Shown here: in pieces, positions 7,607 through 40,410 of the stretch | Numbering within the stretch: the first letter of the stretch is position 1 | Layout: each line of letters opens with the position of its first letter | Source: Dirofilaria immitis | Taxonomy: Eukaryota; Nematoda; Chromadorea; Rhabditida; Onchocercidae | Direction of reading: 5' to 3' | Length of the DNA stretch: 64,000 bases | Assembly: GCA_024305405.1 (NCBI GenBank) | Contig: JAKNDB010000065.1 | Coordinates: forward strand, 186,001 to 250,000 | Made by a program: the position numbers and the translations under genes | Notes under the pieces: generated by a model | Database searches by the model: none | Told to the model about the DNA's origin: nothing | Seen by the model: only the letters and a program-made list of their open reading frames with translations

Positions 7607-7892
7607 CACATCGATATATATTATTATCATTATTGCTTGAGTTATATTGCAAAAAAAAATGTAATAAAAATTATCATAAAATGAAAAAACAAATGTTAAA
7701 AACCAGCATGCTCTTGTAAGGTGAGATTTTTATGAGCATCCAATTTGCTATACGTATACTAATGCTTCTATATAAACAAAATTAGCCATGTTTTTCCTCT
7801 TAATGAATTCGTTGGCTGCTAACAAAACTATTTAATTATATATATAAATATATTTTCAAAATCTTTTTATATAATAAAAAATCATAGCATAT

Positions 7893-9330
7893 AAGGAACA
7901 TTGAAGTTTGAAAGCACATCATAGTTGTAAAAGGGCCTTAAGCTGAAATGAACATGTTTAATGCCAAAATGTTACGATTCATAGATCAATAAAGTAAGGT
8001 CAATCAGTCACGAGGTGATATATTAGAGATCAGGTAAGCTCGGAAGGATTAAAAGAAAATAAAAATTTTGAAACTGAGATCAGTTTAATTCAATAATACA
8101 GTTTGACAGCAGTAGCAATTTCGAAAACAATTTGACGGAAGCTGAGGCCATAGTTCAGCGTCGCGAGCAACAGTTCAGCAGGAGTAAGAGAAGTGATGGA
8201 GCGAAAGGAGAACGACAATTTTAAAAGTTAGATACGACATCGTGATATGAATTTAGATTGTTGGTACTTTTTGTTCATTTATTGTTCATTGTACATTTAA
8301 TCCATGGCATTCTGTGAGCATGATATTGTGTTAAAAATATCTTAATAAATATAATAAAGTTGGCCTAGCCGAGTCACAATAACAGCAAGAATCATTCTTC
8401 AATCAACAAACTACAAGCAAAAAGAGAATTCTTTATCGGAAATCGTGCAAAAATTTCCGAACACATCTATTCGGTTTAAGCAACAATTACGATATATCAT
8501 GTATGTGATAGATTTCGATAAAAAGTTATGAAATTTTGACTTGCAGCAGTTGTTTTAATTTCGGATATATATTTTCTCGAATATATATCGAGTATTTCCT
8601 TATTGTTTTCAATGTCAATTTTATGCTCGTAGCTGGATCTTTTGCGATTGTTGAAACAAAAAATGAAACATCGAATCATCGATAACCCCACCAGCGAGGG
8701 AACAAATCGGAGAAATTTGATGAGTGCGTTTTACAAAATTGAACGTTTAGAAAATTTCAGAGCTTCCAGTGAATAACTAACTACAAATATCCGATATCAA
8801 ACAGATTACTAAACCATTTCTGTTTCTCAAAGTTTCAAAATTATTCTCTCATCCATCTCTTAACTTTTGATCTCTTGTCATTCGATTCAATCTTCTGTTT
8901 TTCAAATCACCGAAAAGTCCATTTAACTTCGAAAGATATTATCAAAATAACTTTCATGTTATACTTTATAGAATCATTTCACAGTGAAGTCTTGAATTGT
9001 TTCTTTGTGCTCTATAAAAGATTCATATCAGATCTCCGACTATCAAAAGAAATTATTTCTCGCTGAAATTCACACTACTGACTTAAATTTAAATATTAAT
9101 ACTCTTCCTATATTTTCGGCAATAATTTGTTCCTTGTATAAATAAAACTATTACAACTTTTCAGCCGATCTATTTATTTCTTCAGCTTTGATTCATCAAT
9201 TACAATTTTCACGAAATAACGGAAAGACCAAATTCTTAGTGCGAATAATCTTTTGAAGGAATTGAATAACTTTTGGCACCTCTTTCGTTTCCTTTTTACA
9301 ATATTTCAAAAGATCGGAATTCTGAAAATT
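7893..9330 (+). repeat. 1.44-kb direct duplication, copy A
   Basis: Nearly identical to 12091-13530 over its whole length. The visible differences are a few substitutions plus one-base length changes in A or T runs. It contains an LTR-like part (about 7893-8466, with AATAAA near 8343) and an unrelated 0.86-kb part. The latter includes an identical 63-codon frame in both copies (8875-9066 here). That frame resembles no known protein and is probably not a gene. Copy A is followed directly by repeat B, whereas copy A' is followed by the small collagen-like gene. Confidence 0.9.
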
Positions 9331-9340
9331 GAAAAACACA

Positions 9341-10950
9341 AAAGAAAGTCGAAAAACAAAAAAAAAACTATCATCATTTTATCGTATTATTTATACATCA
9401 AAGATATCAGGCTAATTTTTTTTTTGAATAAATCAGCATTTTCTTTTTTTTTAACAATGAAAAGAAAATTTATGATTAATTTTTTTGCATGAGAAAATCG
9501 TTTTTCTTTATTTTTAAATTAATATTTAATATTATCTTTGAATTATTTCACAATATTTTATTAGTTTTTACATTTTAATAATAAATTAAAATTTCATTTA
9601 AAAATATAAAATTTATATATTTCAATTCAAATAAATTCGAATATATTACTAATATTTAATAATTTATTTAAAAATCAATGAAATATGTATGGGAAAATTC
9701 ATAAAAATATAATTCAATTTTATTATATAATAAATTATTTTTAATAATTTATTAAAATTATGCAAATTTTTTCAAAAAGAATTTTTCTTTCGTCTTTTTC
9801 TTTTTTCTCTTTCAATTCGTTAATTCTTTCGACAATTATATTATTTAATAAGTTTTCTTTTTCTTTTTTTGCAAATATAATTTAAAATAAAATAAAATAA
9901 ATTAATACTTTGTGGAAAGAAAAAAAACTTCATATTGAAAATTTTAAAAATTTAACTCATTTAATTATTTATAATATTAGCATCCCAATCTTCTTTGCCT
10001 TAATTCCATTCCAATCTCATTTTGTTGATTAAATTTAATTCTTTCTATCAATACTTAATATCCATGTCGATCATTTGGAATACCCGAAAGATGGGATAAT
10101 AAAAGAAAATCTTAATGAAATTGCATGTTACAATTATCTTCCTCTTTCCATCTCATCCCTTTCTCTCATTTTATTTCATTAAAATGATTCTCGAATAAAA
10201 ATTCCTAAACTTTTTGCATCCCTAAAATTCTCTTCAATACCATTCATTTTCTATTCCTTGCTATGAAAAGAAAATCTAGGAAGAGATTAAAATTAGAACT
10301 TCTTTATTGCTATTATTAATATTCAAAATGAATAAATATATTATTAAAATTCATTGATTGATAATTTCTTGTAATATTGCAATTGAATATTTCGAAATTT
10401 TATTTAATAAAAATAAATTATTTGATGAAATAAAATTGCAAAATATATTATAAACTTTACGTTTTTATCATTTCCTTTCTTATAAAATGAATTTATTTAT
10501 TTAAAAATGTTTTATGCATTGCGAAATTTTAATTAAAATTTATACTTAAATAAATTAAAAATTTAATATATTTGCTAAATTTTTTTGTTCCATAATGTTT
10601 GCTAATATTTTATTAAATAATATAAAAAGGCAAAGATTCATTTTGTCAAATAATCTCAGATTTTTTAAATTCTTTTCTTTTTTAAATTTCTTTTTCATTT
10701 AGCAACTTAACTTTTTTATCGCTAATTTTTTTCTTTTATGTAATTTAATTTTTTTATCACTAAAAATTTGGAAGTATTCAAAAAGCATAGCAAATAAAAT
10801 ATATTGTAGAAATTTAGAAATTGATAAAGATGAAATGAATCGAATGCTTTTGAAAAATGATAATTTCGTAACGATAATTTTACGATCCTATTTATTAGCG
10901 TTAATTCTAATTCGTTACTAATGCAAGCATGACCTTTAATAGTTTAACGT
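9341..10950 (+). repeat. 1.6-kb repeat B, copy 1 (carries the Wolbachia insertion)
   Basis: Direct, near-identical copy of 33414-35010, which lies in an intron of the Eph receptor gene. It is very AT-rich and non-coding as far as I can see. Differences are mainly homopolymer lengths. The match continues for about 21 bases (11531-11551, matching 35010-35030) on the far side of the bacterial fragments. So this copy is a filled site and the intron copy an empty site for the same insertion. Confidence 0.9.
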
Positions 10951-11257
10951 ACAATCTCTTCTTTCTTGATAAGGTCACTAATTGTAAAGCTTCAACTCAT
11001 TGCGTGTACAATTATAAGCCAAAATGACATCATCATGAGTTATATCGATTAAATGTAGCAAAATTTTACACCTTTCTATAGGTTCAGAAACTTGTGACCG
11101 AGTCTGGCTCCAAGATGAGCATCAGCAATTATTCCAGGAATATCTGCTACTACAATTTTACTATTATCCACCCTTACTATACCTAAATGGCTTAATGGTG
11201 ATGAATGGATAATCCCCTACTCTTGTATTTGCATTTGAACAAACGAGTCAAAAATTT
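10951..11257 (-). pseudogene. obg: Wolbachia-type obg (cgtA) GTPase fragment
   Basis: Obg is a bacterial ribosome-associated GTPase. Read on the minus strand with frameshifts, the fragment gives the end of the P-loop region (STFLTR-like, then [13 protein letters not shown]), the block LGIVRVDNSKIVVADIPGII with the DxxG motif of G3, then [13 protein letters not shown] and a broken [13 protein letters not shown]. It ends near KKEEIV, just before the expected NKxD motif. Only about 100 codons of a roughly 330-residue protein are present, and several indels break it. The DNA carries no intron and is bacterial in protein content. A Wolbachia source is inferred from the host type; I did not run a search. 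Not functional. Confidence 0.85.
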
Positions 11258-11260
11258 TGA

Positions 11261-11500
11261 TTCAATAACACCGCATAAGAAGTTTAAGGCAGAGGTATAT
11301 GTATTGAAGAAAGAGGAGGGAGGGAGACATACACCATTTTTGAAAATTATCAGCCGCAATTCTATATAAGAACTACGGATGTAACAGGAAGTATAAAATT
11401 GTTGGAAGGAAAAGAGATGGTAATGCCAGGAGATAATGTAAGTATAGAAATAGAATTACAGATACTGATAGTAATGGATAAGTGATTGCATTTTGCAATA
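11261..11500 (+). pseudogene. tuf: Wolbachia-type tuf (EF-Tu) C-terminal fragment
   Basis: EF-Tu carries aminoacyl-tRNA to the ribosome; this is a piece of its C-terminal domain 3. The frame reads [20 protein letters not shown] and on through GGRHTPF. A one-base loss in a T run near 11337 shifts the frame, after which it reads [27 protein letters not shown] and HFAI. A TGA (11483-11485) replaces the codon expected for the Gly before LHFAI. These blocks are among the most conserved in EF-Tu, so the family call is firm. The start and C-terminus are absent. It lies head-to-head with the obg fragment, although obg and tuf would not be expected to be neighbours in this way. A non-functional nuclear copy of bacterial DNA. 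Confidence 0.93.
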
Positions 11501-11532
11501 ATTTTTGACCCGTTGTTCAAATGCAAATACAC
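11499..11532 (+). pseudogene. obg: Second, inverted 34-bp piece of obg
   Basis: This stretch is the reverse complement of 11224-11257, apart from one indel and one or two substitutions. Read on the plus strand it encodes FLTRCSNANT, the stretch just after the obg P-loop. The tuf fragment is therefore bracketed by two inverted copies of the same obg stretch. At first sight the pair looks like terminal inverted repeats of a transposon, but both arms are explained by obg coding sequence. Confidence 0.75.
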
Positions 11533-11551
11533 AGTTAAACTGATCATTATA

Positions 11552-11999
11552 AACTATCTTTATTGTCATCAATGCGAAGCAAAGTAATAGAAGGAAATGT
11601 TTGGAATAAAATTTATTTTCAGACATGTTATCCTGACAAATAAATCGGAAGGGCCGTCAAGAAGAGAAGGAAACGATGAAATTCAGAATATGTAAGTGCC
11701 CTAAAGGAAACAGGAAACAGAAATGGTGGGCCAAAAGGATCACAAGATGGACAGGGCGATAAGGGCAAAACGAGATCGAAGAAATTGAAAGATGTGAGAA
11801 TAGGAGATGAAAAAATGGTAGGAATGAGAAGACGATAGAGGGATTAGCTAATGAAATTTGAAAGAAGAGAACACAATAGAACAAAGAAAACGATTCTGAA
11901 TTCACATGAAAATATAGCATCAAGGATAACGAGTGCCATCAAGAAACAATGTGTTGCTAAAGACATTGCACTTTTCGACCCGGAATGTTGAAGAAAGCC
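11552..11999. other. Unassigned purine-rich stretch
   Basis: Sequence between the bacterial fragments and the next LTR-like relic. From 11650 to 11900 it is purine-rich on the plus strand, with a frame that contains GPKGSQDGQGDKGK. This could be a decayed retroelement or collagen-like relic or chance. The frame has stops within it and I recognise no family. Confidence 0.3.
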
Positions 12000-12662
12000 G
12001 AAAGATGTGATTAATTACATATAGATAGAAATGTCAAAAGGTCAAATAGCGTCACAAGAAGTATTGCAAGCAATGGGAAATCATACTTTCAAGGAACATT
12101 GAAGTTTAAAAGAACACCATAGTTGCAAAAGGGCCTTAAGCTGAAATGAACATGTTTAATGCCAAAATGTTACGATTCATAGATCAATAAAGTAAGGTCA
12201 ATCAGTCACGAGGTGATATATTAGAGATCAGGTAAGCTCGGAAGGATTAAAAGAAAATAAAAATTTTGAAACTGAGATCAGTTTAATTCAATAATACAGT
12301 TTGACAGCAGTAGCAATTTCGAAAACAATTTGACGGAAGCTGAGGCCATAGTTCAACGTCGCGAGCAACAGTTCAGCAGGAGTAAGAGAAGTGATGGAGC
12401 GAAAGGAGAACGACAATTTTAAAAGTTAGATACGACATCGTGATATGAATTTAGATTGTTGGTACTTTTTGTTCATTTATTGTTCATTGTACATTTAATC
12501 CATGGCATTCTGTGAGCATGATATTGTGTTAAAAATATCTTAATAAATATAATAAAGTTGGCCTAGCCGAGTCACAATAACAGCAAGAATCATTCTTCAA
12601 TCAACAAACTACAAGCAAAAAGAGAATTCTTTATCGGAAATCGTGCAAAAAATTTCCGAACA
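12000..12662 (+). mobile_element. LTR-retroelement-like relic
   Basis: Begins with a block (12000-12090) that is also found at 16752-16840, then continues into the LTR-like sequence shared with copy A. The 3' part has AATAAA, a TTGGCCTAGCCGAGTCACAA block, and an end close to TTTCCGAACACA. Four related relics in this window share these blocks in the same order, which is why I treat it as a mobile element. No gag or pol frame is left. BEL/Pao is a guess at the class. Confidence 0.5.
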
Positions 12663-13530
12663 CATCTATTCGGTTTAAGCAACAATTACGATATATCATG
12701 TATGTGATAGATTTCGATAAAAAGTTATGAAATTTTGACTTGCAGCAGTTGTTTTAATTTCGGATATATATTTTCTCGAATATATATCGAGTATTTCCTT
12801 ATTGTTTTCAATGTCAATTTTATGCTCGTAGCTGGATCTTTTTGCGATTGTTGAAACAAAAAATGAAACATCGAATCATCGATAACCACACCAGCGAGGA
12901 ACAAATCGGAGAAATTTGATGAGTGCGTTTTTACAAAATTGAACGTTTAGAAAATTTCAGAGCTTCCAGTGAATAACTAACTACAAATATCCGATATCAA
13001 ACAGATTACTAAACCATTTCTGTTTCTCAAAGTTTCAAAATTATTCTCTCATCCATCTCTTAACTTTTGATCTCTTGTCATTCGATTCAATCTTCTGTTT
13101 TTCAAATCACCGAAAAGTCCATTTAACTTCGAAAGATATTATCAAAATAACTTTCATGTTATACTTTATAGAATCATTTCACAGTGAAGTCTTGAATTGT
13201 TTCTTTGTGCTCTATAAAAGATTCATATCAGATCTCCGACTATCAAAAGAAATTATTTCTCGCTGAAATTCACACTACTGACTTAAATTTAAATATTAAT
13301 ACTCTTCCTATATTTTCGGCAATAATTTGTTCCTTGTATAAATAAAACTATTACAACTTTTCAGCCGATCTATTTATTTCTTCAGCTTTGATTCATCAAT
13401 TGCAATTTGCACGAAATAACGGAAAGACCAAATTCTTAGTGCGAATAATCATTTGAAGGAATTGAATAACTTTTGGCACCTCTTTCGTTTCCTTTTTACA
13501 ATATTTCAAAAGATCGGAATTCTGAAAATT
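12091..13530 (+). repeat. 1.44-kb direct duplication, copy A'
   Basis: Pair of 7893-9330. Copy A' extends further to the left into retroelement-like sequence (12000-12090) that is missing at copy A. On the right it runs on into the collagen-like gene. It therefore looks like the more complete, original context, with copy A as the truncated duplicate. Its 63-codon frame (13075-13266) is identical to that of copy A. Confidence 0.9.
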
Positions 13531-13567
13531 TGAAGGAAAGCTTCTAAAATTTTAACTCATTACGCAC

Positions 13568-13580
13568 AACTAATTTCAGA
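13568..13580 (+). promoter_or_regulatory. Possible spliced-leader trans-splice acceptor
   Basis: A consensus-like acceptor, CTAATTTCAG, ends at 13579, nine bases before the ATG of the small collagen-like gene. No cis-exon is evident upstream. In nematodes this arrangement is typical of an SL1 trans-splice site. Inferred from position and consensus only. Confidence 0.5.
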
Positions 13581-13588
13581 CAATATCA

Positions 13589-13957
13589 ATGCTTTATATC
13601 AGTACTTTTCTATTGGTTATTTGTGCTATTTTCATGATTCAAGTGAGTTTTCTTTTAAATGAGAAAAGTAAAAAAAATTTTAATCGTTTGGATACATTTT
13701 ACAAATTTCGTTTCCAGGCTTGTGGGCCATTCCAGATGCGAGGGCCACCAGGGCTACCAGGAATAGATGGACAAGATGGAGGCGAAGGAAATCCGGGACC
13801 GCAAGGGCCTGAGGGACCAATGGGAAATCAAGGTCAAATAGGAGAGCCTGGAATTCAAGGCCAACCAGGCATACGTGGAGATATCGGAGAGCAAGGTGAT
13901 GCTGGTGATCAAGGAATGAGAGGTATAAGAGGACAGGATATGATGGCAGGACGATGA
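13589..13957 (+). CDS. Small secreted collagen-like protein
   Basis: Exons 13589-13642 and 13718-13957 give 97 residues. The first 18 (MLYISTFLLVICAIFMIQ) form a signal peptide or membrane anchor. ACGPFQMR and about 22 Gly-X-Y triplets follow, ending in RGQDMMAGR. The 75-nt intron starts GTGAGT and ends TTTCCAG. It is a multiple of three with no stop, so retention would give a 122-residue form; splicing is more likely from the good sites and the sharp change in composition. The protein is much shorter than usual cuticle collagens (about 300 aa) and lacks the C-terminal Cys cluster. It could be a truncated relative or a true small collagen-like peptide. A plausible trans-splice acceptor and an intact frame favour a real gene. 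Confidence 0.7.
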   Translation: MLYISTFLLVICAIFMIQVSFLLNEKSKKNFNRLDTFYKFRFQACGPFQMRGPPGLPGIDGQDGGEGNPGPQGPEGPMGNQGQIGEPGIQGQPGIRGDIGEQGDAGDQGMRGIRGQDMMAGR

Positions 13958-14156
13958 AATCGAGTAATGGAATATGTCGGATATAACCTTCCCAATCATA
14001 TCGATTTTCTTCGGATTATTTTTGTTTGCATAACTGTTGTATACTTATTTATTATTTCACGAGAATGATAATCCTGAAATGAAATAATAATCGATGCCCT
14101 AACGGAATTTCCTTATTATTGCTGGAACACAAAAGTTGAGTTTTGTAAAACGAATG

Positions 14157-14404
14157 TTTCATTATTACAGTAAAAGATTACTCCTCCTTTCATTATTACA
14201 GTAAAGATTACTCCTCCTTTCATTATTACAGTAGAAGATTACTCCTCCTTTCATTATTACAGTAAAAGATTACTCCTCCTTTCATTATTACAGTAAAAGA
14301 TTACTCCTCCTTTCATTATTACAGTAAAAGATTACTCCTCCTTTCATTATTACAGTAAAAGATTACTCCTCCTTTCATTATTACAGTAAAAGATTACTCC
14401 TCCT
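14157..14404. repeat. 31-bp minisatellite, eight units
   Basis: Eight near-perfect tandem units whose core is TCATTATTACAGTAAAAGAT followed by TACTCCTCCTT. One unit is 30 bp and one has an A-to-G change. It lies 200 bp behind the stop codon of the small collagen-like gene, so it could be transcribed in its 3' UTR or lie just outside it. Confidence 0.97.
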
Positions 14405-14790
14405 TGTCGAATACAGCGTTATTATAATCAAACAAAAGTTGCATTAATAAAAGAAAATTACATATTTCTTTGCGCTAATAAAAAGTTGAGTCAATCTTCG
14501 GATGTAAAAGAAATCTATTCATATGTTTGCGACAGAATTAAAATATTGTTGAAGTAAAAAAAAAAATGAATTAAGAAAAATGAGTCAATCAGTTTGAAGA
14601 AGGAAATTTTAGGATTAATATTGAAGTATATTATAGCGTTTTTAAATTATATATTTCTCTTATATTTTTATTCATTCTTAGCCAATAAAAATACGTTCTC
14701 ATTGCTTTTCATGAAACGATGCTAATTTGGATGCAAACAGTTCATTTATTTGCTTACTTATTAAAATAAACATTATCAGCTTCTGTACGG

Positions 14791-15562
14791 CTATTTACAA
14801 TCGTCAATTTCTGCACTTTTAATCACACTGGCCAGTCTCTCAGAGTTATTCACAAGATTACCAATAGTGTCATCATATTTATAACATAATGGTTTTAGCT
14901 ACTAGTTGAGAATTATTTAATTTTTCAGTTTGACAGATGCAGTTAATTAATTTTTTCGCCTGATGTAGCCTGGAAAAACTAAATGTCTTTAAAAAATCAA
15001 AAAACAGTAGAAAAAGCAATAAAACTAAAATATTTGCCAATGTCTATCGCAAATTTTTTAATTTCACTTCTTTCCCTGTAAGTTCGTCGGTATTGCCACT
15101 AATCATCCATAACAAAATCAGCAAGTTATTCATCTTCTATTAAGTGAACCTAAAATTCTACAAAAAATTTATTGGTTCATATGATTTGAGAATTTACAAC
15201 TCACCGATCTCATACCATATCTAATTGAAATCGCGAGTAGAAGCAAAGAATTAATAACTCCTTTTGCTTTGGATTTAATATTGGTATCATATGTTAAATG
15301 TGCTAATTTACTATGCAATGTAAAACGTAAGCTAAAATTCTGCTCATTGTATCGATTAGCTCTGAAAAAAGCTTCATTTAACGCGCGCTAACAAAAGCGT
15401 TATATCTTGTAGTCGCAGAACTGTACCAGGATTCTTTACCAATGCGGAAGAAGAGAATCCTGAGCGCCGAAGCCATTTTGAAAAGATGTTCTTTAGCGAA
15501 ATCAGTTGGAGGGTATATTGGGCATTTGGTCTCTCCTTTCTTTTGAGTTGTGATGTCGTCAT
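14791..15562 (-). pseudogene. Decayed unidentified gene with introns
   Basis: Minus-strand exon-like blocks in order. (1) From about 15562 to 15437, ending KWLRRSGFSSSAL before a 52-bp intron (GTAAAG...TTGTTAG). (2) 15202-15384, RALNEAFFRANRYNEQNFSL and on to SIRYGMRS, followed by a GTGAGT donor. (3) About 15035-15160, VHLIEDE-stop-LADFVMDD-stop-WQYRRTYRERSEIKKF. (4) 14791-14968, LHQAKKLINCICQTEKLNNS, then after a one-base frameshift near 14880, KYDDTIGNLVNNSERLAS, ending in a stop. Phases of blocks 1-2 and 2-3 agree. The two in-frame stops and the frameshift make it a pseudogene, unless they are sequence errors. I do not recognise the protein family. Base composition is less AT-rich than the surroundings. 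Confidence 0.6.
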
Positions 15563-15625
15563 TAAAATTGTCTTATTGATATCATTGAATTTGAATTATT
15601 AATATTGCAATCGCTGCGTCCATCG
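15305..15625. repeat. 0.3-kb direct repeat, copy 1
   Basis: Highly similar to 16259-16572, about 950 bp downstream in the same orientation. The central 170 bases, which include the GCGCGC stretch, are almost unchanged. It spans blocks 1 and 2 of the unidentified pseudogene. Confidence 0.9.
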
Positions 15626-16258
15626 ATGTATTATGAAATTATCGTGACAAAAGTTTAGTTACTCAAGTTTGCAATTCGTCTTCAAAGTGGGTAAAACAAA
15701 AATTTGAAGAGTCCTTCAATTTTGTCGCGATCAGAAGGAAGATGTCGATAGCCGCATAATGATTGTATTATGGATGGAAAAATCCAGTTGAATTTATTTT
15801 GATGATTATTTCCTATTCTCTATTATAAGTCTCTTCTAATCTTAGATGATGATAATGTTTGATTCCATTTTTCAAATCTTATATTTTACAGTTTATTTTC
15901 TTTGTTCATGTGTTTGAAATTAACAATTTTAGTGATGCAACTACAGTAATAGAATGACTAATTGGCAATAATGTTTACTTTTCCTTTTGCCATTTTTCAT
16001 TCATTTTGTATTTTGCCATGGACAAAAAGTGATGAATCATTCGGTATAAAAATTAAGTTTCAACATTTTTATTTGCTGGTAATTTTCATTTTTGAAATTC
16101 CATTTAGCTTCAGTAAGTTATAACAAAATTATTAATTCTGTCTAACGGAACTGAATCAGTCGCTTAGCATGACGTAAAAACGCAATGCCTATATAATTTG
16201 GATTATAAAATTATAAAGTTCAAATTTTTATAGCTGCACGATATTAGAAGTATTGAAT

Positions 16259-16572
16259 AATTTACTATGTAATGTAAAATGTAAGCTAAAATTCTGCTCA
16301 ATGTATCGATTAGCTCTGAAAAAAGCTTCATTTAACGCGCGCTAACAAAAGCGTTATATCTTGTAGTCGCAGAACTGTACCAGGATTCTTTACCAATGCG
16401 GAAGAAGAGAATCCTGAGCGCCGAAGCCATTTTGAAAAGATGTGCTTTAAATCGTTGGATGAGCATATCGGGCATTTGGTTTCTCCTTTTTTCTTATGAT
16501 ATCGTCATTAAAATTGTCTTATTGATATCATTTAATTCGTATTATTGATTTTGCAATCGCTGTGTCTATTTA
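16259..16572. repeat. 0.3-kb direct repeat, copy 2 with partial pseudogene
   Basis: Second copy of 15305-15625. On the minus strand it again encodes HIFSKWLRRSGFSSSAL, the 52-bp intron, and RALNEAFFRANRYIEQNFSL, but then departs from copy 1 and hits a stop. It is a truncated second copy of the unidentified gene. Confidence 0.8.
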
Positions 16573-16751
16573 TTGTAATAAAGATCTAATTAACCAAGTT
16601 TGCGGTGCTACGATTGAAATGCAGAAAGGACTGTCAATCTTTATCACGGTTGAAGAAGATCAGCAAACCACAGATAGCGTAATGAATCTATTGATTTAGT
16701 AAGATCAACATTTTCGCAGAAGTGAGTGAAGGATCATAGCGATCACTATAT

Positions 16752-17200
16752 TGGCGAAAGCCGAACGATGTAATTAATTATGTATAGATAGGAATGTCAA
16801 AAAGTCAAATAGCATCATGAAAAGTAACTGAATACAAAGGGAAATTCATGAACAGAAGGAGCATTAAATTCCAAATAGCGTAATGCACAGGATTCAACGA
16901 GCCGAAAGGATAAACATTTTTATCGCCATAATGCTCCGATCGACCGATCAATAAAGGAAGGTTAACCAGTCCGAGACTATATGTGTAGATCTAGTAAGAG
17001 GAAAAAGTCCAGAAGGATTTAAAAAGAAGAAATTTCGAAGTTGAGAGGTCATTTCAAGTTCGACAATTCAGCAGAGCAATTCGATACAATTCAACAGTAG
17101 CAGCAAATAAACTTAATAAAGCCTATTGTTGACCTAGGCGAATCACATGAATAAACAAGAGGATTCTTCATTCGAAATCATACAAATAATTTCCTAACAA
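16752..17200 (+). mobile_element. Diverged LTR-retroelement-like relic
   Basis: Keeps the order of blocks seen at 12000-12662: GCCGAACGATGTAATTAATT, then CCGATCAATAAAGGAAGGTT, GAAGGATT, AATAAAG, a GACCTAGGCGAATCACA block and an AATTTCCTAACA end. It is shorter, with large internal deletions. No coding capacity was seen. Confidence 0.5.
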
Positions 17201-20022
17201 ATAATATTATACAATAAAACATTTCTTGAAATTTGACCAATTTTGAAATTGAGCGAAGGAAAAAACTAAAGTACTTTTTCTACTCTGCTGAATATAGTAC
17301 TATCATGGGCTTAGACGGAAATAGTATATATTTATGCGGAAAATGCAAACAACTCGCCATTTCCACTCCGTTCCTAATAATGAAAAAAATGGATCATCTT
17401 TGTACGCAAAAGAAAGATGTTCACATGACCATGATATGATATGATATAAATCAAAATGGCATAAAGCAATTTTAGGTGCAAAACTGCTGAAAAAAGTATG
17501 AAACTGTGAGGTAAAGAGGGACGAGTCATTTGATGTGGATGAAGAAAAATCAAAGATTAATAGTGATTACAGATTTTCTAATGTTTTTCGTCGTTATCAG
17601 CTGTTGATCTTCTCTTATTATTCGATTAAGCTTTTTTAATTCATTCCAAAATTCGCAAAATATTTATATCAGATATTCTAATATCCAATATAAATAAAAG
17701 ATTTTTTTCGAAAATTTACTGCCACTAATTTTCAATATAAATTTAAAATCTTTTCTTACTCAGTTAGGATTTCTGTATCCCCTCAATTTTGATATCTCGG
17801 TAGAAATTAAGAAGTATAAAGTAAAAGATTCTATCGTGCACGATCCTTTATTAGAAAATGACGAATGATAAATTGAAAAGATCTATAAAAGATCAAAAAT
17901 TGAATATTTGATAAAAATTTTGAAAAATTCTAGACACTTGCAAGTTACTGATTTCAGAATGCCAATACATTATTTTTGCCGTTTTCTTGATCAAACACTG
18001 CTTGAAGACAATTTATGAAGCAGAAAAGATTATATGTAAAAATTTTATTTTCATCTCCTAATAAATAAAACGACCAAATAGAGGATATAATAGAAATTCT
18101 TTTCCGTATATTTCGCGATAATTTAACTTTCTTTTTTTTTTTTTGATAAATGAATGATAAAAACTGATTACTTTAGAAAAAATGATTCATTTGAATTACA
18201 TCTCAAATAAAAATGTTTTTCGAAAGATTTCTGTGAATTAAAAGAATTGAATTTCTCGTAACGAATATTCGAGATTAGAATTTCACGGTGAATGATCGAT
18301 TTTAATTACTACTATTTTTTAAAAACGATTAAATAATAATACACTCTAGTGATATTTTCCCTTCACTGCTTTCTCATTTATTCTTCCGTAAATTCATCCA
18401 ACATCAGTTTAATTTTTTGGTTATTAAAACGGAAAAACAGTTGAATAGATTTTCATTTATTATCATACATGAATACTAGTCAAAAATTGATAACTTAATG
18501 ATCAGAAAACGACAAAGAGAATAAAATGATATTATGAAAAACCAATTTCTCTCAGATAATACATCATTTCTTATTTCTAATTAAATTCCCGGTAAAGTAA
18601 ATCGATTAAAGCATTCATAAAAGCAACTTGAAATAGTTAAACAAATCAATGAATTCATATACAGTTGTGCAATTGTGCAATGATATTAATGTTCATGTCA
18701 GCTTTTTGCTATTCCACCAAAATCATTTATGATAAATTTATAAAATAAGCCAAGTCAATTTATGAAAAGTCTAACGCTTTCTATTATACGATATAAGATA
18801 ATGACCATTCGTTTTCTTTATTCGTTGGAAGGCTCACATTTCATATAACTTGAAATTAAATTTTGTATGCATAAAAACTGACAGAAATGTACAAAAGGGA
18901 AAATATTTAAGTATATAAAACAAATCGAAATGCATATTTTTATTTAAGATAAAGGCACCTAGGAAAAAGTATTGAATGAAATTCACAAATGAATTTCAGG
19001 AATTGCAGAAAATTAAGAAGAGTTAAGAAGAAAAAGACAAATTACATTTTTTTTTTGATGAAGAATAAATTGCACATTTTAGTGTAAATAAATAATTAGA
19101 TAAATCGTTGAAAAAAATTGGATCATTTAGGGAAATTAAAATTTGCTAAAGTTTAAGAATATACAATGCCTATTGAAAAAATCAAGAAATATTTGTTTGA
19201 AAAAAATATATGAAAGATTATAAAACAATGCTATTAAAAGAAATGGATAAGATGAAAATATTTTATCAAATAAAGTAAAATGTATTTTCAATCATTAAAC
19301 TTTTTACATTTAAATTTACTTAAAAATCTGCAAAAATTAAAAATTTCCGAATTTTAACCGAAACAATTAGCAGAAATTGAATAAAAAGAAAATAATTTTT
19401 CCCTAAATGATGAACAAAATTCAAATAAATGCTTGTATTTGATTAATTTTAAACCAGATCAAATAGAAGAATGAACAGATGTAAATGATTGATCATACAA
19501 TTTTTGAGAGTAACGTTAAATTACAAAAATTTTTTTAAAAAGATATAAAAGTAATTTCATGACAATTATTATTATTTGCTTTATACGAAGTATCATTTTC
19601 TTATTTGAATAAAATATTTTTAAATTTTATAATTATTAGTACATTTTTTCTTTCCATCCAAAACTGAAAGAATTATGATTTAAAACAAAATTTTTTTTTT
19701 GAAAAATAATTAAAAAAAATTGGGTAAAGCTATAAAAAAATATCAATTTATGAATAGTAGTAGATTAAAGAAAATGGATTAATGAAATTATACCGGATTT
19801 ACATATATGAATATTATTAATCTTAACATACATGGTTAATTAATCATTAATCAATTAATTTCATAATATCAATAAATGTTCAATTTTATAACATTTATCA
19901 AGATTTGCATGAATGAATAATACCCGTTTTAATTATGAAAACTAAATGTTAATAATATCACTTATTTATCATAATTCAATATTAAAATTTAAGCAGCTAT
20001 AAATTAAACAAATTAATGCCTA
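17201..20022. other. Intergenic, no gene recognised
   Basis: AT-rich sequence between the relic region and the 3' end of the Eph receptor gene. The 68-codon plus-strand frame at 17233-17439 has no recognisable motif or splice context. The last few hundred bases should contain the 3' UTR of the Eph gene, which ends at 20023 on the minus strand. Confidence 0.5.

Positions 20023-40410
<20,388 letters not shown>

What the first reader, a model, noticed from the sequence alone, without database searches (positions are those of the whole stretch)
10951..11532. Chimeric nuclear insertion of Wolbachia-like obg and tuf DNA
About 580 bp in nematode DNA encode pieces of two bacterial proteins, Obg GTPase (minus strand) and EF-Tu (plus strand), joined head to head and broken by frameshifts and a stop. 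Conserved blocks are plain: LGIVRVDNSKIVVADIPGII for Obg, and [20 protein letters not shown] with MVMPGDN for EF-Tu. Filarial worms are known to carry nuclear copies of Wolbachia DNA. What is notable is that two loci are fused in one short insertion, which implies several breaks and joins during or after transfer.
Basis: partly seen in the sequence, partly recalled or inferred. Interest (0 to 1): 0.85.

Follow-up and report, generated by a model that had tools for sequence, protein, structure and literature searches.

The report
Patchwork Wolbachia DNA in heartworm chromosome
A short, broken patchwork of three DNA pieces from the worm's bacterial partner Wolbachia sits in a dog heartworm chromosome; it is real and clearly delimited, but it is one of many such relics and most likely does nothing.

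Summary
Confirmed, and ordinary in kind. The host is Dirofilaria immitis: two contig lengths equal N50 values printed for its nanopore assembly. Window 10950-11531 is a nuclear Wolbachia insertion (nuwt) of three pieces, not two: obg (10950-11262, minus, 92% to wDi), tuf (11260-11501, plus, 94%) and a 32-bp second obg piece, inverted (11500-11531, 97%). wDi, the heartworm's own Wolbachia, matches best among 41 Wolbachia genomes. A paralogous copy of the site without the insert lies at 34930-35046. Frames are broken and private changes ignore codon position, as in neutral relic DNA. Composites are common: 5 of 6 nuwts whose DNA I held join non-adjacent Wolbachia pieces. Published work reports 483 nuwt regions in this species, and adjacent or inverted pieces in other filariae. 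Modestly new: the empty site, and the fold-back geometry of the third piece, which suggests end joining with templated copying. Longer-than-chance microhomology was tested and not found.

The parts
10950..11262 (-). Wolbachia obg piece (wDi 909343-909655), four indel events relative to wDi, frame broken
   Evidence: 92% DNA identity to wDi; sister to wDi at 100/99 in an obg tree; NCBIfam Obg_CgtA
11260..11501 (+). Wolbachia tuf (EF-Tu) piece, domain 3 (wDi 696635-696877), one indel and a TGA stop
   Evidence: 94% to one wDi tuf copy and 93% to the other; Pfam GTP_EFTU_D3; grouped with wDi at 91/89
11500..11531 (+). second obg piece, inverted relative to the first (wDi 909349-909380), beginning 6 bp inside the inner edge of the first piece
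   Evidence: 97% to wDi; 94% inverted repeat with window 11224-11256
10880..10953 (+). left host flank; its last four bases TACA are also the first four of the obg piece
   Evidence: alignment to window 34938-35012
11531..11564 (+). right host flank, continuing the empty-site sequence
   Evidence: aligned to window 35010-35046; its first 18 bases are identical there and occur nowhere else in the window
34930..35046 (+). paralogous empty (pre-integration) site without the Wolbachia DNA
9341..10953 (+). host segment B, the duplicated flank left of the insert; its copy is 33404-35012
   Evidence: 98.8%; 17 mismatches and 9 gaps over 1602 aligned sites
7879..9330 (+). host segment A of the same duplication; its copy is 12078-13530
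   Evidence: 98.8%; 9 mismatches and 5 gaps over 1436 aligned sites, counted on 7893-9330

Best explanation
A nuclear Wolbachia transfer (nuwt) in the heartworm Dirofilaria immitis. Shown: three pieces from two places of a supergroup C-type Wolbachia close to wDi (obg, tuf, and again obg inverted) joined into a 582-bp insert; a host target that lost little or no DNA, as the paralogous empty site shows; broken reading frames. Inferred: fragments of Wolbachia DNA were captured at a double-strand break in the germ line and sealed by end joining. Inferred, less sure: the last 32 bp are no independent fragment but a snap-back copy, in which the free end of the tuf piece folded back on the obg piece already joined, copied 32 bases, and was then joined to the right host end. 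The insert has since decayed neutrally and most likely has no function.
For: Wolbachia origin and wDi as best match among 41 genomes (six genomes reached from named loci); trees. Empty site. Neutral decay: of 10 substitutions seen only in the insert, 2 are at third codon positions, against 44 of 70 wDi-wOo differences (Fisher p 0.015). Composite structure is usual: 5 of 6 held nuwts. Fold-back: the 32-bp piece begins 6 bp from the inner edge of the first obg piece; an independent random piece would start within 10 bp of that edge, on that strand, with a chance of about 5e-6 (reckoned after seeing the geometry). Match coordinates show inverted partial copies of one Wolbachia region at two other places, C55:10711-11008 and C21:2664120-2664317. 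Reverse-complement snap-back insertions are described in C. elegans as a minor class (PMC5068794, passages).
Against: Shared bases at the joints (4, 3, 2, 1 here; mean 2.4 over 11 contacting inner joints of five nuwts, 7 further joints with gaps left out) are no longer than chance joints give (mean 2.7, P 0.55), so microhomology use is not shown. At C21 the inverted copy starts 70 bp from the edge, not next to it, and both other short copies are weak matches (E 8e-4 and 7e-5). The insert's private changes (10 of 553) exceed what the flanking duplication's 26 differences in 3038 predict for an insertion after the duplication, so the order of events is unsettled. With wOo as the only outgroup, 11 obg changes fall on the insert side and 5 of them are at third positions, a weaker contrast. 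No reads and no other Dirofilaria genome could be examined.
Confidence: 0.94

Rival explanations
1. Stepwise build-up: an obg piece, perhaps with a small palindromic end, inserted first, and the tuf piece entered later at that weak point; no single capture event.
For: The tuf piece sits between the two arms of the obg inverted repeat. At C60 a 150-bp piece of 91% identity lies between two collinear pieces of 78-79%, which looks like a later nested insertion.
Against: The private-change rates of obg (5 of 311) and tuf (5 of 242) are alike, so there is no sign of different ages, though the counts are small.
Confidence: 0.25
2. Assembly or library chimera of heartworm and Wolbachia reads.
For: Junction reads were not available; the assembly was made from raw nanopore reads and contigs classed as Wolbachia were removed.
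Against: The pieces are 6-8% different from wDi and broken, so they do not come from the live symbiont; a precise empty site exists in the same contig; four other held loci have the same kind of architecture.
Confidence: 0.02
3. Resident nematode genes: mitochondrial EF-Tu or an Obg-like GTPase of the host.
For: The host genome has EF-Tu-like and Obg-like loci of its own.
Against: 94% and 92% DNA identity to wDi, against no DNA match to those host loci; trees place both pieces with wDi.
Confidence: 0.005
4. The obg and tuf pieces were already fused in the donor Wolbachia chromosome and were transferred as one collinear fragment.
For: The donor strain itself is not sampled; insert and wDi branches in the obg tree are 0.038 and 0.046 long.
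Against: Where both matches lie on one contig in the genomes, they are never nearer than about 25 kb (nearest in G014) and about 213 kb apart in wDi; the pieces are cut inside coding sequence and one is partly repeated in inverse order.
Confidence: 0.02

Closest known systems
Nuclear Wolbachia transfers (NUWTs) of D. immitis and other filariae (Vancaester et al. 2025, PMC12693587; outline, results section, data section and passages seen)
   Same: Same species and, by the N50, the same assembly; short fragments, mostly supergroup C-derived and neutral; 483 regions reported in D. immitis, 85% from supergroup C
   Different: The parts I read count matches gene by gene and do not speak of piece order, junctions or empty sites; the locus list is in supplements that I could not open
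Adjacent nuwts in Brugia malayi (Ioannidis et al. 2013, PMC3849323; one section and passages seen)
   Different: Called recent in the paper's title and partly transcribed; no inverted third piece in the section read
Wolbachia fragments in Onchocerca flexuosa and Acanthocheilonema viteae (McNulty et al. 2010, PMC2882956; one section and passages seen)
   Same: Homologous stretches of 159 and 174 bp on average, with inverted repeats in two contigs (Of70, Of71)
   Different: The authors compare these repeats with transposon insertion sites; no pre-integration site in the passages read
Complex and mosaic numts/nupts (Portugez et al. 2018, PMC6215612; abstract and one section seen)
   Same: Several non-adjacent organelle pieces joined end to end, blunt or with a few shared bases
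   Different: Organelle donors in plants, not a bacterial symbiont in a nematode

Membership tests
Nuclear Wolbachia transfer (nuwt) | Sequence nests within Wolbachia diversity | tested here: met
   obg sister to wDi 100/99; tuf with the wDi copies 91/89, below the tool's 95/80 star
Nuclear Wolbachia transfer (nuwt) | Flanked by host nuclear DNA in one contig | tested here: met
   Both flanks align to the empty site at 34930-35046; a collagen-repeat ORF lies at 13574-13957; contig C7 has 648,738 bp
Nuclear Wolbachia transfer (nuwt) | Broken, neutrally evolving copy | tested here: met
   Indels and a stop; 2 of 10 private changes at third positions
Nuclear Wolbachia transfer (nuwt) | Physical junctions supported by reads or PCR | not testable with these tools
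   No reads held
Complex (multi-piece) insertion | Two or more non-adjacent donor pieces directly joined | tested here: met
   wDi 909 kb, 697 kb (or its 266-kb duplicate gene) and 909 kb inverted
Microhomology-mediated end joining | Shared bases at joints longer than chance | tested here: not met
   11 contacting joints, mean 2.4; 357 contacting of 400 simulated joints, mean 2.7; P 0.55. 10 of 11 share at least one base against 63% in the simulation. Small sample; end joining as such is not excluded
Polymerase-theta snap-back insertion | Short reverse-complement copy of nearby sequence at a joint | tested here: met
   11500-11531 is the inverse copy of 11224-11256, starting 6 bp from the inner edge
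Polymerase-theta snap-back insertion | Dependence on polymerase theta | not testable with these tools
   Needs genetics in a laboratory nematode

The most novel reading that the evidence does not exclude
Filarial nuwts are built by an end-joining process that strings small Wolbachia fragments together and sometimes ends a piece by fold-back copying, leaving short inverted copies. The insert here, with its empty-site paralogue, would be a clean natural example of nematode alternative end joining acting on symbiont DNA.
Probability: 0.3. Interest if true: 0.45.

Novelty: new member of a known kind. Interest (0 to 1): 0.27.

Why it matters
As a single locus it matters little: it is one of hundreds of decaying Wolbachia relics in heartworm. 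If the fold-back and patchwork pattern holds genome-wide, nuwts would be a natural record of how a nematode germ line repairs double-strand breaks with foreign DNA. It would also mean that counting nuwts gene by gene misstates the number of insertion events, which bears on inferences about past infections.

Tried and rejected
Rejected: host EF-Tu or Obg; collinear transfer from a rearranged Wolbachia; contamination chimera (divergence, empty site); a classical transposon with the inverted repeat as its ends (both arms are obg coding sequence, and the genome search with the locus found these arms only here). My first reading, that the insert is filler at the breakpoint of the flanking duplication, was dropped when the empty site showed host homology continuing on the right. 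Enrichment of microhomology was tested and not found. A 54-bp match at 81% to wDi at window 9843-9896 showed up in one locus only (L014) and not in the overlapping locus L001 or the window search; I take it for low-complexity chance.

Led nowhere: the genome-contig search with the bare 46-aa piece (too short); relatives of the host genome are not held; the wDi set used for BLAST is incomplete (about 870 of 920 kb held, of which 112 kb read N).

Limits of counts: the 157 matches come from the first four of eight stretches drawn at random, 40 of 42 candidates were scored. 48 matches under 80% identity were left out of the nuwt estimate, because some look like collinear exons of host genes. Four of the 109 kept are copies of one sequence (C10, C22, C27, C55) and two more share another (C22, C25). 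The six nuwts with DNA in hand were found by searches with this locus (C7, C18, C21, C39) and with two protein families (C60, C26), so they are no random sample. Other held host loci without a wDi match at E 1e-4 were not counted as nuwts: those on C3, C4, C6, C15, C58, C63, C64 and at C26:0.88 Mb. For the joint statistics 11 of 18 inner joints were used; 7 with gaps of 1 to 554 bp were left out, as were 43 of 400 simulated joints.

Left-out joints, Pfam misses and differing assembly sizes were added.

Full report
What was checked. The finding places a broken Obg piece (minus strand) and a broken EF-Tu piece (plus strand), head to head, at 10951-11532. Both are there. DNA searches against Wolbachia genomes align 10950/10951-11262 with obg and 11260-11501 with tuf. 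Of 41 Wolbachia genomes searched, 41 have a match to the 590-bp query, and the heartworm symbiont wDi is best for both pieces (obg 92%, E 7.5e-124; tuf 94%, E 5.5e-104), ahead of wOo from Onchocerca ochengi (84% and 90%). Unjoined reading frames match Obg_CgtA and EF-Tu models, as fragments below the whole-protein cut-offs. Pfam recognises the EF-Tu domain 3 but neither Obg frame, and the genome search with the Pfam family PF01018 did not list this place either. Within the 64-kb window no other stretch matches the wDi DNA held at E 1e-6.

A third piece. Window 11500-11531 is again obg, in the opposite orientation, matching wDi 909349-909380 at 97%. The first obg piece ends, on its tuf side, at wDi 909343. 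The two form an inverted repeat of 32-33 bp around the tuf piece. The inverted copy begins six bases from the inner edge of the first. As an independent fragment it would start within ten bases of that edge on that strand with a chance of about 5e-6, and would fall anywhere inside the piece on that strand with a chance of 1.5e-4 (both reckoned after the fact). It is most simply a copy templated by the first piece.

Whose genome. The window is C7:186001-250000 of an 86,694,620-base assembly of 65 contigs. Contig C18 is 3,687,191 bp long and C26 is 4,253,153 bp. The first is the N50 printed for the nanopore assembly of D. immitis (PMC9179477, passages seen), the second the contig N50 printed for D. 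immitis GCA_024305405.1 (PMC12693587). The totals printed there (87,899,012 in 110 contigs; 86,813,779) differ a little from the one held, which may lack some contigs. I take the host to be D. immitis. Contigs classed as Wolbachia had been removed from that assembly.

The empty site. Host segment B (9341-10953) has a 98.8% copy at 33404-35012. In that copy the sequence does not stop where the Wolbachia DNA starts: the right flank of the insert (11531-11564) follows directly, as 35010-35046, its first 18 bases being identical and occurring nowhere else in the window. Window 34930-35046 is therefore an uninterrupted paralogue of the target, and little or no host DNA was lost (one G differs). The joints share 4 (host-obg, TACA), 3 (obg-tuf), 2 (tuf-obg) and 1 (obg-host) bases. 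Homology on the right was found for about 33 bp beyond the insert and no further.

Decay and age. Between insert and wDi, obg shows 22 substitutions in 311 aligned sites and tuf 13 in 242, plus indels and a TGA stop. Bases seen in the insert and in none of the seven Wolbachia sequences compared number 5 of 311 and 5 of 242. Two of these ten are at third codon positions, as neutral change predicts (1/3; p 0.51), whereas 44 of 70 wDi-wOo differences are (Fisher p 0.015). With wOo as the only outgroup, the 22 obg changes split 11 to 11 between insert and wDi, with 5 and 7 at third positions, a weaker contrast. In an obg tree of 22 rows the insert is sister to wDi (100/99), with branches of 0.038 and 0.046; in a tuf tree of 19 rows it groups with the two wDi copies (91/89). 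The donor was thus a relative of wDi after the split from wOo. One result does not fit neatly: the flanking duplication differs at only 26 of 3038 sites, so an insertion after the duplication should have about 2.4 private changes, 4.7 if all fell on this copy, against 10 counted (Poisson P 0.0002 and 0.02; conditional tests 0.001 and 0.06). Gene conversion between the copies, a duplication formed between a filled and an empty allele, or unsampled donor differences could explain it; I cannot decide.

How usual it is. The host loci in hand were compared with the 860 kb of wDi fetched (112 kb of which read N) plus 904369-914626. Six are nuwts, and five of the six join non-adjacent Wolbachia pieces: C7 (this one, three pieces), C18 (four), C39 (two: obg and a stretch that I read by eye as rplB), C60 (five, one apparently nested) and C26 near 1.61 Mb (nine matches). 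C21 near 2.34 Mb shows one. A search of the host genome with four randomly drawn 20-kb wDi stretches (80 of 920 kb) gave 157 matches, 109 of them at 80% identity or more, with a median of 147 bp. Scaled up, this is about 1,250 pieces and 215 kb, a rough figure that counts pieces, not insertions. Vancaester et al. report 483 nuwt regions in D. immitis at a cut-off of 1e-30. Of the 10 pairs among the 157 matches that lie less than 200 bp apart, six are same-strand and collinear or nearly so, one joins stretches some 120 kb apart in wDi (C16), and three lie on opposite strands and come from one stretch. Of these three, C55:10711-11008 resembles the case here (a 34-bp inverted copy, 180 bp away, starting 3 bp from the inner edge); C21:2664120-2664317 has a 40-bp inverted copy starting 70 bp from the edge; C8:812555-812835 is a neighbouring piece flipped, not a copy. 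Their letters could not be fetched, and the two short copies are weak matches (E 7e-5 and 8e-4).

Mechanism. Fragments of Wolbachia DNA captured at a double-strand break and joined end to end explain the order, the truncation inside genes and the near-lossless target. Which pathway did it is open. Overlaps at 11 contacting inner joints of five nuwts average 2.4 bases (7 joints with gaps left out); random joints analysed the same way average 2.7 (357 contacting of 400 simulated; P 0.55), so there is no evidence of microhomology selection. The fold-back geometry points to templated copying. In C. elegans, polymerase-theta repair leaves templated insertions, of which reverse-complement snap-back copies are a minor part (PMC5068794, passages seen). 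That a heartworm enzyme did the same here is inference.

Against what is known. Nuwts in filariae are well documented, including adjacent pieces from different parts of the Wolbachia genome in Brugia malayi (PMC3849323) and inverted repeats in O. flexuosa inserts (PMC2882956). Complex organelle insertions joined end to end are known in plants (PMC6215612). A search for papers holding three of the terms nuwts, end joining, microhomology and Wolbachia listed six, none of them by title about nuwt junctions in filariae. I saw only that listing, and the library lacks most subscription journals. The locus is a new, well-delimited member of a known kind; it may itself be among the 483 published regions, whose list I could not open.

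Verdict. Observation confirmed; interpretation supported; interest low to moderate, because the feature called notable, fusion of two loci, is common in this genome.

Noticed in passing
L033 1119-3189 (C26 about 1609.8-1611.8 kb), with further matches at C26:1612300-1612487 and C26:1613189-1613264: A dense patchwork of Wolbachia pieces: nine matches from all over wDi at 94-99% identity in L033 and two more within 1.5 kb; a young multi-fragment insertion or a hotspot.
   Followed up: partly
L008 106-1790 (C60 about 4295.2-4296.9 kb): Five Wolbachia pieces, four at 78-80% identity and one at 91% sitting between two collinear old pieces: looks like a young insert inside an old one. The low identity might also mean another supergroup; not tested.
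   Followed up: no
C55:10711-11008, with copies of the longer arm at C27:2642-2725, C22:6493-6576 and C10:12530926-12531009: The same Wolbachia piece in four places at equal identity, one with an inverted short copy 180 bp away: perhaps a nuwt spread by host duplication.
   Followed up: no
window 7879-13530 and 33404-35012: A host segment of about 3.1 kb is present twice (98.8%); in the second copy roughly 20 kb (13531-33403) separates the two halves. The order of duplication, 20-kb separation and nuwt insertion is unresolved.
   Followed up: partly
window 11985-12110: A diverged repeat: besides itself, 16 places in the genome match the end of the stretch 11525-12110 at 72-86%, and a match lies at window 16748-16975.
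   Followed up: no
window 13574-13957: ORF with collagen triple-helix repeats, Pfam PF01391 at 1.5e-14, probably part of a collagen gene of the host.
   Followed up: no
window 14157-14405: Tandem array with a period of about 62 bp, copies about 98% alike.
   Followed up: no
window 18001-64000: G+C falls from 0.26-0.34 in the first 18 kb to 0.16-0.27 in the rest, in 2-kb steps.
   Followed up: no
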